From Leptodactylus fallax (Eukaryota; Chordata; Amphibia; Anura; Leptodactylidae), in NCBI GenBank assembly GCA_947044405.1, contig CAMRHE010001107.1, forward strand, positions 153,970 through 217,969: a stretch of DNA of 64,000 bases. Reading direction: 5' to 3'. How positions within the stretch are numbered: the first letter of the stretch is position 1; every line of letters starts with the position of its first letter. Both the position numbers and the translations under genes were made by a program. The notes below the pieces were generated by a model that had not been told where the DNA came from, searched no databases, and was given only the letters and a program-made list of their open reading frames with translations. Below are positions 27,992 through 32,650 of the stretch, one piece after another.

Positions 27992-28427
27992 TGTGAGTAT
28001 GTGAACCTAGAGGGCGCTAGGGAGCGACCCAGGCCAGCCCTGAAAAGGCCCCCAGCCACACCTTTTGGTGGGGCGCGTAACTCCAGAAGGCTGGAGTATC
28101 CTGCAGGAAGCAGGAGATGGTGGACCCAGCCAAAGGCAGACAGGGCGGTCTGTCCCCAGAGGACTGGGGTCCAGAGAGGACTTACAGAGATTGTCAAGCT
28201 TCTTATTGCCCCAGAGGCTAGTTAGGGGCTCAAGGAGTCAGTTAGTGCCCTAACTGTGGCCTAGGTTTTTTGTTGTTTTGTTATGGTGCAAGTAAGCTGA
28301 ATAAAGCCCGTTTATTTTATACTTGGACCGTCTGAACGCTATCTGTCCGGCGCCCAGTACCACGAACCACCGCTGTCAAGACCAGGAGTCTACCGCCATT
28401 TGAGATTAATTCCCCCAAGTTGTCGCA
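27992..28427 (+). repeat. 5-prime LTR of the gene-capturing element
   Basis: A 436-bp TG...CA LTR, highly similar to 32212-32650 along its whole length. The visible differences are scattered substitutions and short indels, including one of three bases near 28190. GAATAAAGCCCG near 28297 supplies a polyadenylation signal. The LTR pair implies one integration event. Confidence 0.93.
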
Positions 28428-28922
28428 TATGGTAGAGGATGCGGGCATAAAGAGATCCACGCAACTCCTGGAAGACAAGTGGTTGGTGACTGCAGTACTG
28501 CTAAGTGTGCATTGTGGCCTACAGCTGGAAGAAATCTGTGATTTCAACTGAGAAACCCAGGAAGGGGTGAGTGGAATATGCAACATAGCAAATTATGTGC
28601 AAAAACTGGTGAAATTAAAACTCTGGAAGAGGAATCCAGGGAATGTACTTTGTGTATACTGTGGCACAGAAGTCTGTAAAGTGCTTGCTGATGGCAAGAA
28701 AGTAAGCAATGTGTGTAGAAGCTGGATATTGCAAACAGTCTATGTGAAAGGCTATGGTGCATGATTGTGTTTTCTGTGGAAGACAGAAGAAAATGCTGGT
28801 TGTTGTAGTGCCACATAAGTTAACTGTTTCAATACATGTGACTGCAGAAGATGGCAAAAAAAAGTTGCTGCCGGTTGAACCCAAGGTTGCTGTGGAATAT
28901 TGTGTAATCTTGTTAGTAAACC
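28428..28922 (+). other. Leader of the LTR element
   Basis: The sequence starts TATGGTAGAGGATGCGG just inside the LTR, where a tRNA primer-binding site is expected. The TGG is compatible, but I cannot name the tRNA. Short frames (28567-28764 and 28754-28954) contain cysteine pairs (CVYCGTEVC and CVFCGRQKK), but I recognise no family. No gag capsid motif was found. Confidence 0.45.
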
Positions 28923-29954
28923 ATGGGCAAGAAAAAGAGAATTTCAGCTTGTAAAAAAGCAGAGAAGTTATGCACAGGTTTATTGGTGCAGCAGTCTGAA
29001 TGCAGAGAGACACAAAACCCGGAACAGAGCATGTGGAATGCAAGTAAAGATAAAGGGTTGCACGAGAGTGACTCAGTTTTTCTAAAGCACCTCTGTTCTA
29101 TGAAAGAATATGTCCCTGCTGACTGTATGTCTCATACTGGAGTGCATCAAAGCGCCAAAGATGAAAATATTGTGGTGCAGCAGCTTCAAGATAAGAATAA
29201 AACCATCAGGTTCATGTATGAAGATGAAATATCTGATTGGAAATGGCAACTTGAGGTATCAGAAAAAGAGAACCTTAAGTTAAAGAAAGAGCTTGAGACT
29301 ATAAAGAGTTTATATCCTAGTCATTGTGAAAATGTGGTACTGGGTTTGCCTGGAATGGACTGTGTCACTAAGAAGGAGTTTGCAGAAATGAAATGTGCTC
29401 TATCTAATAAAGTCCTACAGAGTGTTGGACAAAAGCAAGTGCTTGAGAAGCAATTGCAGGATTTATAAGAGCAGCATGTCCAAGACTCCATTGTCAAAGA
29501 GAGTGTCATTGAAAAATTAAGAGATGACATTGAAACTGCTAAATGTGAGAGAAATGAATTTTTGCAGTGTCAGTCAGAATGTCTGGATGACCAAGTCAGG
29601 AAATGTGAAAAACTTTCAGCTGCATTAACTGAAAATGAAATTGCAGAGCTGAGGAAGCATGTGTCTGACTGAGAGAGTGATTTAGAATCTGTGGTGCAGA
29701 CATTGCAGTCAGAGCAAAACTTGCATAAACTAAAGCAGATTCGGCTAAATAGTGAAGTCAACGTATGGAGGAGCAGACCTGGAGTTCTGATACAAAAAGA
29801 AATGGAACTCAAAGCTAGAATATGTAGCCTGGAGAGGGCGCTGTCAGGATCTTGTGAAGATAATGAGAAATTGTCTGTTTTGGTGCAAAATAAAGACAAA
29901 GAATTGATGGAGATGTCGTCTGTCCATGCTCAGAAAGTGCAAGCCTTACAAGAG
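28923..29954 (+). pseudogene. Unrecognised coiled-coil coding segment in the LTR element
   Basis: A single frame is broken by in-frame stops at 29466-29468 and near 29671. It encodes acidic/basic heptad-rich helices (for example SEKENLKLKKELETIKSLY near 29260 and KVLQSVGQKQVLEKQLQDL near 29410-29465). Composition and heptads indicate coiled coil. I cannot assign a parent gene. It runs in the same frame into the myosin-like segment. Confidence 0.6.
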
Positions 29955-30490
29955 AGTCATAAAAAAGTAGAGACTCAACTTCAAGAGCTGCAACTAAAAG
30001 TCACAGAAGGGGACAGGTTTCGAGCAGAACTGCTAGACAAGGCAAACAGACTGCAGGTGGAATTGAATAATGTCACAGGGCTTCTTTCTCAAGCAGACAG
30101 CAAGTTTATCAAACTTTCCAAAGATTTTTCTACACTAGAATCTCAGATTCAGGACACTCAGGAACTTTTGCAAGAAGAAACTCGACAGAAGCTTGACCTT
30201 AGTACAAAACTAAAACAAATGGAAGATGAGAAAAATGGTTTCCTTGAGCAACTAGAGGAAGAAGAGATAGCAAAAAGAGATTTGACAAAGCGGATTTCAA
30301 CACTACAGGCTCAGGCAACTGATATGAAGAAAAAAAAATAGAGGATAGTATTGGGTCCTTGGACTCTGTTGAAGAACTAAAGAAAAAGTTGCAAAAGGAG
30401 CTAGAAGCTACAAATCAATGGTTTGAAGAGAAAGCCAATGCTTATGACATGCTGGAAAAGGCCAAGAGAGAATTGGACCTCCAGATAGAA
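29955..30490 (+). pseudogene. Captured non-muscle myosin heavy chain tail segment
   Basis: The frame reads ETQLQELQLKVTEGDRFRAE, LQVELNNVTGLLSQADSK (about 30055-30105), TLESQIQDTQELLQEETRQK (30135-30195), KLKQMEDEKNGF and LEKAKRELDLQ. This follows, block for block, part of the rod of vertebrate myosin-9/myosin-10. The rod dimerises into bipolar filaments. A net minus-one change at the A9 run (30330-30338) follows MKKK, and the next frame starts at EDSIGSL. About 180 residues that are multi-exonic in the host gene are contiguous here, so the capture was from spliced RNA. No motor domain is present. Confidence 0.85.
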
Positions 30491-31150
30491 GACATGAAGA
30501 TTCAGTTTGAGGGAAACCTGTCTAATTTATCTTCTGAGATTGTAGATCTAAAAATTCTTGTTGCTAAACTAAAGGTGCAAGTGGACAAACAGGAGGAAGT
30601 TGCACGCATCAAGGAACAGCTGGAGTTTCAGATGGATCAAGTGAAGCACGAGTCAGAAATAAAGTGGGAAGAGCACACTTTTCAGATTGAACAGTTAAAA
30701 ACCAAAGTGGAATCTAAAAGAGAAGAATTGGATCGATTGCAGCAGTCTTTATCCAATACTGAACAGTCGGCATCTGCACTATCTTCAAAGTTGGCAGCAC
30801 TAGAAGCTGAAAAGGACTCGCTGCAGAGCCTGTTAACCTCTAAAGAATCAGAGCTGTTATCCCTGAAAATGTGATTCAAGAAACAGAGTCTTTATTCAAC
30901 CAAGAGCAAGATAAGAGAGCCACTGAGATACGGGACTTGAATGAAAGACTTGACAAAAAGTCTGCAGATGAGCAGAAGCTTTATCAGAAGATGTTAGAGG
31001 ATCAGTTCAATATAGTTCAGGGAACAGTGAGGGAAGCAGAAAATATCATCCAGGATGCAGTGCGAAGGATTGAGGAAGATCTGCAAGCTGCAATAGTAAA
31101 AACTGAGATGGAGGCTGCTCAGAAATATGCGGCAATGAAGAAAGTTCCAG
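30491..31150 (+). pseudogene. Captured HIP1/HIP1R-like coiled-coil segment
   Basis: After the myosin-like part, helices continue (for example SNTEQSASALSSKLAALEAE near 30756-30815). A frame change occurs near 30871. Then come KRATEIRDLNERLDKKSADE and VQGTVREAENIIQDAVRRIE (31012-31072). The EAExIIQDA motif at the end of a coiled coil is characteristic of huntingtin-interacting protein 1 and HIP1R, endocytic clathrin/actin adaptors. Neither the ANTH nor the talin-like I/LWEQ domain is present. The match is from memory of the family and less certain than the myosin or hnRNP U assignments. Confidence 0.6.
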
Positions 31151-31734: not shown

Positions 31735-32085
31735 GGCAAAGTTTGCTTTGAGATGAAGGTTACGGAAAAGGTACCCGTGAAACATTTATACTCTAAAGAC
31801 ATTGATCTGCATGTAGTACGTGTTAGTTGGTCTCTGAGCTCCTGTGGATTCATGATAGGAGAAGATGAAGATTCTTACAGCTATTCACTAAAGGAATCAA
31901 AGTCATGCAATGGGATGGCTGAAGACTATGGCGAGAAATGTGATGAAAATGATGTGATCCCCTGTATGGCGAATTGTGAAGGTGATGAAGTAAAACTTGC
32001 CTTTGCACAGAATGGCCAGGATCTTGGCGTAGCATTTAAAGTGATGAGAAAATGGAAAACTCGACTGAGCGGAATTTGGAAGTAG
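31735..32085 (+). pseudogene. Captured hnRNP U-type SPRY domain
   Basis: The frame gives GKVCFEMKVTEKVPVKHLYS, KDIDLHVVRVSWSL, GEDEDSYSYSLK, EDYGEKCDENDVI and FAQNGQDLGVAFKV. This matches the SPRY domain of hnRNP U family nuclear RNA/DNA-binding proteins throughout. The neighbouring SAP, NTPase-like and RGG regions are absent. Homology ends at 32040; about 15 element-specific codons follow before the stop at 32083-32085. This last segment has no visible stop or frameshift. It may have been the 3-prime-most capture. Confidence 0.88.
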
Positions 32086-32194
32086 AGACCGCCAGATTGG
32101 GACTTCTGGAGAGACACTGGACAGGCATACATGGTTGAAGAGGGACTTCGACATAGGATGTCTCGTCCCATTGTAGCTCACCCCATGGGTAGTG

Positions 32195-32211
32195 AGCTGA
32201 GGGGGAGGGTA
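32195..32211 (+). promoter_or_regulatory. Polypurine tract before 3-prime LTR
   Basis: A purine run (GAGCTGAGGGGGAGGGT) ends at the 3-prime LTR boundary at 32212. This is the position where plus-strand DNA synthesis is primed in LTR retroelements. Confidence 0.8.
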
Positions 32212-32650
32212 TGTGAGTATGTGAACCTAGAGGGCGCTAGGGAGCGACCCAGGCCAGCCCTGAAAAGGCCCTCAGCCACACCTTTGGGTGGGGGCGCATA
32301 ACTCCAGAAGGCTGGAGTATCCTGCAGGAAGCAGGAGATGGTGGACCCAGCCAAAGGCAGACAGGGCAGTCTGTCCCCAGAGGGCTGGGGTCCAGAGAGG
32401 ACTTACAGAGACTAAGTCAAGCTTCTTATTGCCCCAGAGGCTAGTTAGGGGCTCAAGGAGTCAGTTAGTGCCCTAACTGTGGCCTAGGTTTTTTGTTGTT
32501 TTGTTATATTGCACGTAAGCTGAATAAAGCCCGTTTATTTTACACTTGGACCATCTGAGCGCTATCTCTCCGGCGCCCAGTACCACGAACCACCGCTGTT
32601 GGGAGCAGGAGTCCGCCACCATTTGAGATTAATTCCCCCAAGTTGTCGCA
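32212..32650 (+). repeat. 3-prime LTR of the gene-capturing element
   Basis: A 439-bp partner of 27992-28427. It ends TTGTCGCA at 32650 and is followed directly by CAAT and the Tc1 transposase continuation. Confidence 0.93.

What the first reader, a model, noticed from the sequence alone, without database searches (positions are those of the whole stretch)
27992..32650. LTR retrotransposon whose interior is a chain of captured host coding segments (myosin rod, HIP1-like, hnRNP U SPRY)
Seen: two LTRs (436/439 bp), CAAT duplication, polypurine tract, and no retroviral or retrotransposon gene. The interior instead encodes blocks that I recognise from myosin-9/10 rods, HIP1-family coiled coil and the hnRNP U SPRY domain. 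All are on the sense strand and without introns, in what looks like one chimeric reading frame now broken by two nonsense and two frameshift changes. Known: retroviruses and a few plant LTR elements (for example maize Bs1) transduce cellular RNA by template switching. Inference: this is a vertebrate element that accumulated at least three unrelated genes and moved in trans. Multi-gene capture in one unit would be unusual.
Basis: partly seen in the sequence, partly recalled or inferred. Interest (0 to 1): 0.92.

Follow-up and report, generated by a model that had tools for sequence, protein, structure and literature searches.

The report
Jumping gene made of host genes
In what is likely a frog genome, copies of a jumping-gene family lack the usual copying genes and carry instead a chain of pieces from at least four unrelated host genes, likely picked up from messenger RNA and predicted to spread with borrowed machinery, which shows how unrelated genes can be stitched together and multiplied.

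Summary
Two LTRs (27992-28427, 32212-32650) with a CAAT target duplication interrupt a Tc1-type transposase gene. No gag, pol or env was found inside. The source genome could be searched: 14 of 14 full-length or nearly full-length copies carry a form of this chimera (one without Velo1, one without the first third). The host's own Velo1 gene shows 10 fixed differences in 162 codons. hnRNP U matches linked to HIP1 cross introns of the host gene, so that source was spliced mRNA. This copy's stops are private to it, but codon tests give dN/dS near 1, so selection on the protein is not shown. Best reading: a multicopy LTR family without gag-pol that collects host mRNA segments, probably by template switching. 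Known in kind (maize Bs1), a new variant in a vertebrate.

The parts
27988..27991 (.). target-site duplication CAAT, left copy
27992..28427 (+). 5' LTR, 436 bp, TG...CA ends, AATAAA inside
   Evidence: 93-95% identical to 38 further places besides the two LTRs of this copy (best 40 scored)
28430..28445 (+). position of the primer-binding site (begins TGG, two bases after the LTR); most other copies differ from this one just here
   Evidence: most copies resume at 28437 after 11 bases; tRNA not tested
28428..28922 (+). leader without recognised coding content; fewer shared variants than the coding part
28923..29960 (+). N-terminal part of the reading frame, coiled coil of unknown origin; start Met shared with an Engystomops protein (P0080)
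   Evidence: stops at 29466-29468 and 29670-29672 are absent from the other copies with data (0 of 12, 0 of 9)
29961..30511 (+). MYH9 rod block a: residues 1248-1419, then 1523-1542 (a stretch of about 378 bp present in some copies is absent here)
   Evidence: frame change near 30323-30341
30512..30598 (+). MYH9 rod block b, residues 1055-1083, out of order with block a
   Evidence: 12 of 29 identical; score 63, next best 27
30593..31077 (+). HIP1-family block (clathrin-binding coiled coil and a short later piece), nested between MYH9 blocks b and c; GAGGAAG at 30593 and 31072
   Evidence: frame change near 30844-30874
31072..31230 (+). MYH9 rod block c, residues 1082-1134, continues block b
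31237..31731 (+). Velo1/Bucky ball block, about residues 124-288
31735..32049 (+). hnRNP U block, residues 279-383 of P0003, truncated SPRY
32050..32211 (+). 3' tail with frame end at 32083-32085 and purine-rich tract before the LTR
32212..32650 (+). 3' LTR, 439 bp
32651..32654 (.). target-site duplication CAAT, right copy
27277..27991 (+). Tc1-type transposase gene, left part, interrupted by the element
32655..32964 (+). Tc1-type transposase gene, right part

Best explanation
This is one copy of a multicopy LTR retrotransposon family whose interior, in place of gag and pol, is a chimera of intronless host segments (MYH9 rod, HIP1 family, Velo1, hnRNP U), likely taken from spliced mRNAs by template switching during reverse transcription and predicted to move with another element's enzymes. 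Shown: LTR pairs and 4-bp target duplications, recurrence of forms of the same chimera in 13 other copies, donor identities, a HIP1 block nested at one point of an MYH9 stretch, a separate Velo1 gene in the same genome, and HIP1-linked hnRNP U matches that cross host introns. Inferred: host mRNA was packed with element RNA, the reverse transcriptase switched templates at short matches (such as GAGGAAG at both HIP1 borders), several captures followed one another, and later deletions and recombination between copies trimmed and reshuffled blocks. The open frame probably came with the captured coding pieces; no selection on the protein is demonstrated.
For: LTR/TSD unit in a Tc1 gene. In the source genome (2.5 Gb) 40 LTR places were scored of 5346 first-look candidates, all 93-100% identical to the 5' LTR; around these lie 14 full-length or nearly full-length copies including the window, and 14 of 14 hold a form of the chimera (L011 lacks Velo1, L014 lacks most of 28547-30438, and the fetched stretch cuts one LTR of L027 and leaves out one of L032). 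Of 10 copies with both complete LTRs in one stretch, 9 have identical 4-bp flanks and LTR K2P is 0.014-0.052. MYH9 b (1055-1083) and c (1082-1134) flank HIP1 without a gap. Longer forms elsewhere: HIP1 about residues 1-313 of P0033 at most of 69 places; MYH9 about 1214-1597 in the best match; hnRNP U 165/181-383 or to 455. Host hnRNP U has introns after residues 185 and 215; of the 6 hnRNP U matches that lie next to a HIP1 block, 6 cross the second and 4 also the first (read). HIP1 then Velo1, same strand, at 13 places with 78-147 bp between, 0 in reverse order. Host Velo1: 10 fixed differences (7 nonsynonymous, 3 synonymous) in 162 codons against 13 copies.
Against: No autonomous partner was found, so movement in trans is untested. 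Junctions were not compared with donor DNA except Velo1, so template switching is inferred. The N-terminal third (28923-29960) has no identified donor and could be the element's own. MYH9 block b rests on 12 of 29 identical residues; an earlier, longer alignment of this stretch (score 56) was reached by 12 of 435 control windows, 9 of 3000 heptad-keeping shuffles and 0 of 3000 full shuffles. First-look candidate numbers (thousands) are not confirmed copies, and the fetched copies all come from the 40 best LTR matches. One pair of hnRNP U and Velo1 matches stands in the reverse order, 2819 bp apart (not followed up). Many of the 95 hnRNP U and 72 MYH9 matches were not shown to lie in the element.
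Confidence: 0.85

Rival explanations
1. The chimeric protein works for the element or the host and has been kept by selection; the chain of coiled coils might replace Gag as a scaffold.
For: Both stops of the window copy are private (0 of 12 and 0 of 9 other copies with data). Nonsense is rarer among shared than private variants, 2 of 224 against 15 of 466 (p 0.07). Size differences of 378 and 96 bp among copies keep the frame (arithmetic; sequences). 48 of 58 element-type Velo1 matches elsewhere have no stop and open frames reach 1328 codons.
Against: Shared variants fall evenly on codon positions (75, 70, 79; p 0.76); host-to-copy dN/dS is 0.50-1.40 in 13 copies; the captured blocks change at sites invariant in the donors, 11 of 41 (Velo1) and 8 of 32 (hnRNP U). 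Shared indels relative to the window are 7 in-frame and 6 frame-shifting, two of the latter mirroring the window's own changes; private ones are 13 and 37. Recent capture of coding sequence explains open frames without selection.
Confidence: 0.2
2. One capture of a chimeric host gene or trans-spliced transcript that already held all the pieces.
For: One frame runs through all blocks; copies share the order.
Against: Host Velo1 and the start of hnRNP U are separate ordinary genes on different contigs. HIP1 is nested inside MYH9, and MYH9 pieces are out of order, which fits stepwise capture. Two places have HIP1 and hnRNP U only 196 and 214 bp apart, too close for Velo1 (a later deletion is possible). 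One copy holds an unrelated open block in the Velo1 slot.
Confidence: 0.07
3. LINE-made chimeric retrocopies or an assembly join, with LTRs there by accident.
For: LINEs are active here: two copies hold nested LINE-type elements.
Against: LTRs directly bound the interior in copy after copy with 4-bp duplications; no poly(A) tail at the 3' end of the chimera.
Confidence: 0.02

Closest known systems
Maize Bs1 retroelement
   Same: LTR element with segments of three host genes (plasma membrane ATPase, xylan endohydrolase, beta-1,3-glucanase) in a chimeric frame (passages of PMC13317346; PMC5408686)
   Different: Plant; three donors. Here a vertebrate, four identified donors, one nested in another, and 14 of 14 copies examined carry a form of the chimera. 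That Bs1 keeps gag-like sequence and is low copy is recalled, from no call.
Crocodilian ERVs with captured KIT-ligand or nectin3 mRNA
   Same: Vertebrate LTR elements with host mRNA-derived coding sequence found in several copies (passages of PMC4299795)
   Different: One host gene each; nectin3 replaces env, KIT-ligand came without loss of a domain, so other retroviral genes remain. Here none was seen.
LTR-mediated retrocopies in animals
   Same: Template switching between element RNA and mRNA at short matches; reported for mosquito, zebrafish, chicken, Drosophila (review passages, PMC5408686; the primary paper is not held)
   Different: The passages seen speak of retrocopies of genes, not of a chain of several genes in one element.
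Acute transforming retroviruses such as MH2 (v-mil, v-myc)
   Same: Host genes carried between LTRs (v-mil and v-myc named for such strains in a passage of PMC13297096)
   Different: Infectious viruses with gag remnants and growth-promoting genes (recalled); none of that was seen here.
LARD/TRIM non-autonomous LTR elements
   Same: LTRs, no gag-pol, presumably moved in trans (recalled)
   Different: Their interiors are non-coding (recalled); this one holds long host-derived open frames.

Membership tests
LTR retrotransposon | paired LTRs with TG...CA ends and short target duplication | tested here: met
LTR retrotransposon | several independent insertions in the genome | tested here: met
   14 copies; different 4-bp flanks, 9 of 10 matching pairs
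LTR retrotransposon | primer-binding site and polypurine tract | tested here: inconclusive
   TGG start two bases after the LTR and a purine run before the 3' LTR; tRNA match only recalled
LTR retrotransposon | own gag-pol (autonomy) | tested here: not met
   no such Pfam match in 15 open pieces; reverse transcriptase in two copies belongs to nested LINEs
Bs1-like transducing retroelement | segments of two or more unrelated host genes between LTRs | tested here: met
Bs1-like transducing retroelement | segments lack introns of the donors | tested here: met
   for hnRNP U: introns after 185 and 215 crossed by HIP1-linked matches; not tested inside the window's own hnRNP U piece, nor against host MYH9 and HIP1 genes
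Bs1-like transducing retroelement | one hybrid reading frame | tested here: met
   open frames to 1328 codons at other places
Retrovirus with captured gene | retroviral gene or remnant beside the captured gene | tested here: not met
   origin of 28923-29960 unknown
LARD/TRIM | non-coding interior | tested here: not met
LINE processed pseudogene | poly(A) tail and no LTRs | tested here: not met

The most novel reading that the evidence does not exclude
A gene-collecting LTR lineage: an element with no known gene of its own that gains, nests, trims and swaps host coding blocks in frame (Velo1 in one slot, an unrelated open block in the same slot in another copy, none in others), copies the product many times, and so acts as a natural generator of new multi-gene chimeras in a vertebrate germline.
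Probability: 0.5. Interest if true: 0.9.

Novelty: new variant of a known kind. Interest (0 to 1): 0.82.

Why it matters
RNA-level capture of several unrelated genes by one element is a proposed route to new genes, with maize Bs1 a standard example. A vertebrate family with datable copies, donors in the same genome and variants that differ by whole blocks would let the order of capture, the junction rules and the fate of chimeric frames be read directly. One donor, Velo1, is a germ plasm protein of oocytes (abstract of PMC3827131), which fits capture in the female germline (inferred).

Tried and rejected
Cytochrome c as donor of 28995-29180: best PDB hit E 0.012; rejected because the relative P0080 shows no such match. 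First placing of MYH9 block b at 1039-1077: replaced by 1523-1542 plus 1055-1083 once longer copies were read and the MYH9 stretch was extended. Argument that the frame was kept by selection through a long divergence: weakened by even codon positions and by the host Velo1 gene. Velo1 tree: element sister to Leptodactylus fuscus, 97/87, but AU tests do not reject Engystomops (0.36), dendrobatoids (0.18), Bufo (0.13) or hylids (0.051); Rhinoderma is rejected (0.008). The 10-kb LTR pairs as autonomous partners: they hold nested LINEs. Viral-contig scans with a protein piece and an LTR pattern: nothing. Rfam: nothing. Structure of piece E alone: mean pLDDT 43.5, helices 8-123, rest uninformative. 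Literature: searches; no title or abstract start listed there names a frog LTR element with several host genes; apart from the listings only the passages cited and one abstract were seen.
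Full report
What is there. Two direct repeats of 436 and 439 bp with TG...CA ends (27992-28427, 32212-32650; K2P 0.048) bound 3784 bp. CAAT flanks the unit on both sides. The flanks are the two halves of a Tc1-type transposase gene, and joining them over one CAAT gives an open frame across the site; the transposase gene carries stops of its own further upstream. 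So this is one clean retroviral-type insertion into an older DNA transposon.

Interior. Pfam scans of 15 open pieces, five of them on the minus strand, found no gag, pol or env. On the plus strand one chimeric frame starts at 28923 and ends at 32085. In this copy it is broken by stops at 29466 and 29670 and by frame changes near 30323-30341 and 30844-30874.

Donors, read piece by piece. C97-222 and D3-52: MYH9 1248-1373 (93 of 126 residues identical to human) and 1370-1419 (28 of 50); MYH9 scores above MYH10 and MYH11. D44-63: MYH9 1523-1542. D64-92: MYH9 1055-1083, 12 of 29, score 63 against 27 for the next place. From 30593 to 31077: HIP1 family (Pfam HIP1_clath_bdg 7e-19; 56 of 73 to a Ranitomeya protein). 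E77-129: MYH9 1082-1134, 26 of 49 over E81-129. So HIP1 sits inside MYH9 with nothing missing around it, and GAGGAAG stands at both borders (30593, 31072; it occurs four times in the interior). E132-296: Velo1/Bucky ball; the best protein, from Leptodactylus fuscus, is 80% identical over 165 residues. E298-402: hnRNP U, 76 of 105, a truncated SPRY. The Velo1 piece begins just after residues 1-121, which a Xenopus study found needed for efficient germ plasm localisation (passages of PMC3827131), so targeting by this piece is not suggested.

The N-terminal third. 28923-29960 has no convincing Pfam or PDB relative. Its one protein relative, of 43 candidates, is P0080 of Engystomops (E 2e-39): 77 of 129 identical from the same Met, after which P0080 reads on in another frame of the same DNA. 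P0080 is thus most simply a decayed intronless copy in a second frog genus. A cytochrome c resemblance did not survive this comparison.

Other copies. The source genome answered five searches. The LTR gave 40 scored places of 5346 first-look candidates, all 93% identical or more. Two of the 40 are the window's own. Fetching around the others gave 13 further copies with the interior; 14 of 14 with the window hold a form of the chimera. L011 lacks Velo1 and L014 lacks most of 28547-30438; one LTR of L027 is cut and one of L032 lies outside the fetched stretch. One further place holds a part, and 15 places show no interior within the fetched 5 kb or so on either side. Two copies hold 5.9 and 6.2 kb inserts with LINE-type reverse transcriptase, not gag-pol. 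Among 10 copies with both complete LTRs in one stretch, LTR K2P runs from 0.014 to 0.052 and 9 have matching 4-bp flanks; L016 does not. So insertions are independent and spread over time.

Blocks vary. Some copies have MYH9 1414-1520 where the window lacks 378 bp, three have a further HIP1 piece (96 bp net), and six lack the second half of the HIP1 block. On the tree of the 14 copies, which is nearly star-like with 2 of 11 inner branches well supported, presence of the HIP1 half needs 6 changes and the MYH9 stretch 4 (13 copies coded for the latter). This suggests recombination between copies or repeated deletion. L011 has, in place of Velo1, 398 bp open over 132 codons, in frame with the hnRNP U part by counting, with no Pfam relative and only a chance-level PDB hit (E 1.5), not seen in the other loci fetched by then.

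Genome-wide searches with donor proteins. Velo1: one ordinary gene (93% to L. fuscus, residues 47-679) and 58 places matching only within residues 115-333, 48 of them without a stop (59 scored of 2389 candidates). HIP1: 69 places scored of 3323, most matching about residues 1-313 of P0033 in one run. hnRNP U: 95 matches, many 179/181-383, some to 455, plus the first exon of the host gene. MYH9: 72 matches, the best covering about residues 1214-1597. HIP1 is followed by Velo1 at 13 places with 78-147 bp between, never in reverse order; HIP1 is followed by hnRNP U at 6 places, 4 with 576-667 bp and 2 with 196 and 214 bp between; Velo1 is followed by hnRNP U at 2 places where the matches meet; one hnRNP U match precedes a Velo1 match by 2819 bp. 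The lists are cut at the best matches, so these are lower bounds, and many single matches were not shown to lie in the element. The window copy is therefore best read as an internally deleted member of a family with longer blocks.

RNA origin. The host hnRNP U gene has introns after residues 185 (about 4.3 kb) and 215 (short). Of the 6 hnRNP U matches next to a HIP1 block, 6 run across the second and 4 also across the first. This shows a spliced source for hnRNP U. For MYH9 and HIP1 the unbroken matches of about 300 codons or more point the same way, but their host genes were not read. The host Velo1 match lies in one exon-like block and says nothing on splicing.

Age and selection. Against the host's own Velo1, 13 copies share only 10 fixed differences in 162 codons (7 nonsynonymous, 3 synonymous), and the window copy keeps three codons that L. 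fuscus has and the host gene lacks. Capture thus came before that host loss and not long before the copies spread. dN/dS from host to copy is 0.50-1.40. Among the 14 copies, shared variants are even over codon positions (75, 70, 79), and shared variants are three times rarer in non-coding parts than in the frame (15 of 618 sites against 224 of 3100; p 1e-6), while private ones are equal. Nonsense is 2 of 224 shared and 15 of 466 private (p 0.07). Indels relative to the window in the frame: shared 7 in-frame and 6 frame-shifting, private 13 and 37. The simplest reading is that cis sequences are constrained and the chimera is close to a passenger, open because it was recently coding; a function is not excluded.

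How it works. LTR-driven RNA of the element is likely packed and copied by another element's proteins. During copying, the enzyme likely jumps to co-packed mRNA and back, which adds a block; two jumps at the same point leave a nested block, as with HIP1 in MYH9. Later deletions at short repeats and exchange between copies trim the chain. These steps are inferred from anatomy and from the general model described in PMC5408686 (passages).

Host.

Known or new. Maize Bs1 carries pieces of three host genes and crocodilian ERVs carry one each. A vertebrate family without visible gag-pol, with four identified donors, nesting and block exchange, in many copies, is a new variant of that kind. No title or abstract start in the search listings named one.

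Noticed in passing
L011:9261-9658 (G000:C385): A copy of the element holds, in the Velo1 slot, an unrelated 398-bp block open over 132 codons that by counting runs in frame into the hnRNP U block; no Pfam relative and only a chance-level PDB hit.
   Followed up: partly
Engystomops protein P0080: A predicted protein of another frog genus matches the start of the element's frame (77 of 129) and then reads on in another frame of the same DNA, so it looks like a decayed copy annotated as a gene.
   Followed up: partly
27277-32964: The element interrupts a Tc1/Sleeping Beauty-type transposase gene that itself carries stops.
   Followed up: yes
46695-50904: DIRS-like element, tentative: RNase H-type and phage-integrase-type Pfam matches (E 3e-4 to 5e-4, below the curated cut-offs) in a 977-codon open frame.
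   Followed up: no
20485-23056: Penelope-like remains: reverse transcriptase on the minus strand and a GIY-YIG domain on the plus strand; nearly the same peptide of about 60 residues ends the minus-strand frame and stands near the start of a plus-strand frame.
   Followed up: no
33852-34349 and 51985-52441: Open frames made of similar short repeated peptides, probably related tandem repeats.
   Followed up: no
leader 28440-28922 and 3' tail: Among 14 copies, variants shared by two or more copies are about three times rarer outside the frame than in it, while private variants are equal, as if the leader is constrained in the active lineages.
   Followed up: partly
31059-31077: The last residues of the HIP1 block (DAVRRIEE) match a second place about 160 residues later in HIP1; longer copies hold HIP1 sequence leading up to it, so the window copy has an internal HIP1 deletion.
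   Followed up: yes
G000:C25: One hnRNP U match stands 2819 bp before a Velo1 match on the same strand, the reverse of the usual order; perhaps two copies in a row.
   Followed up: no
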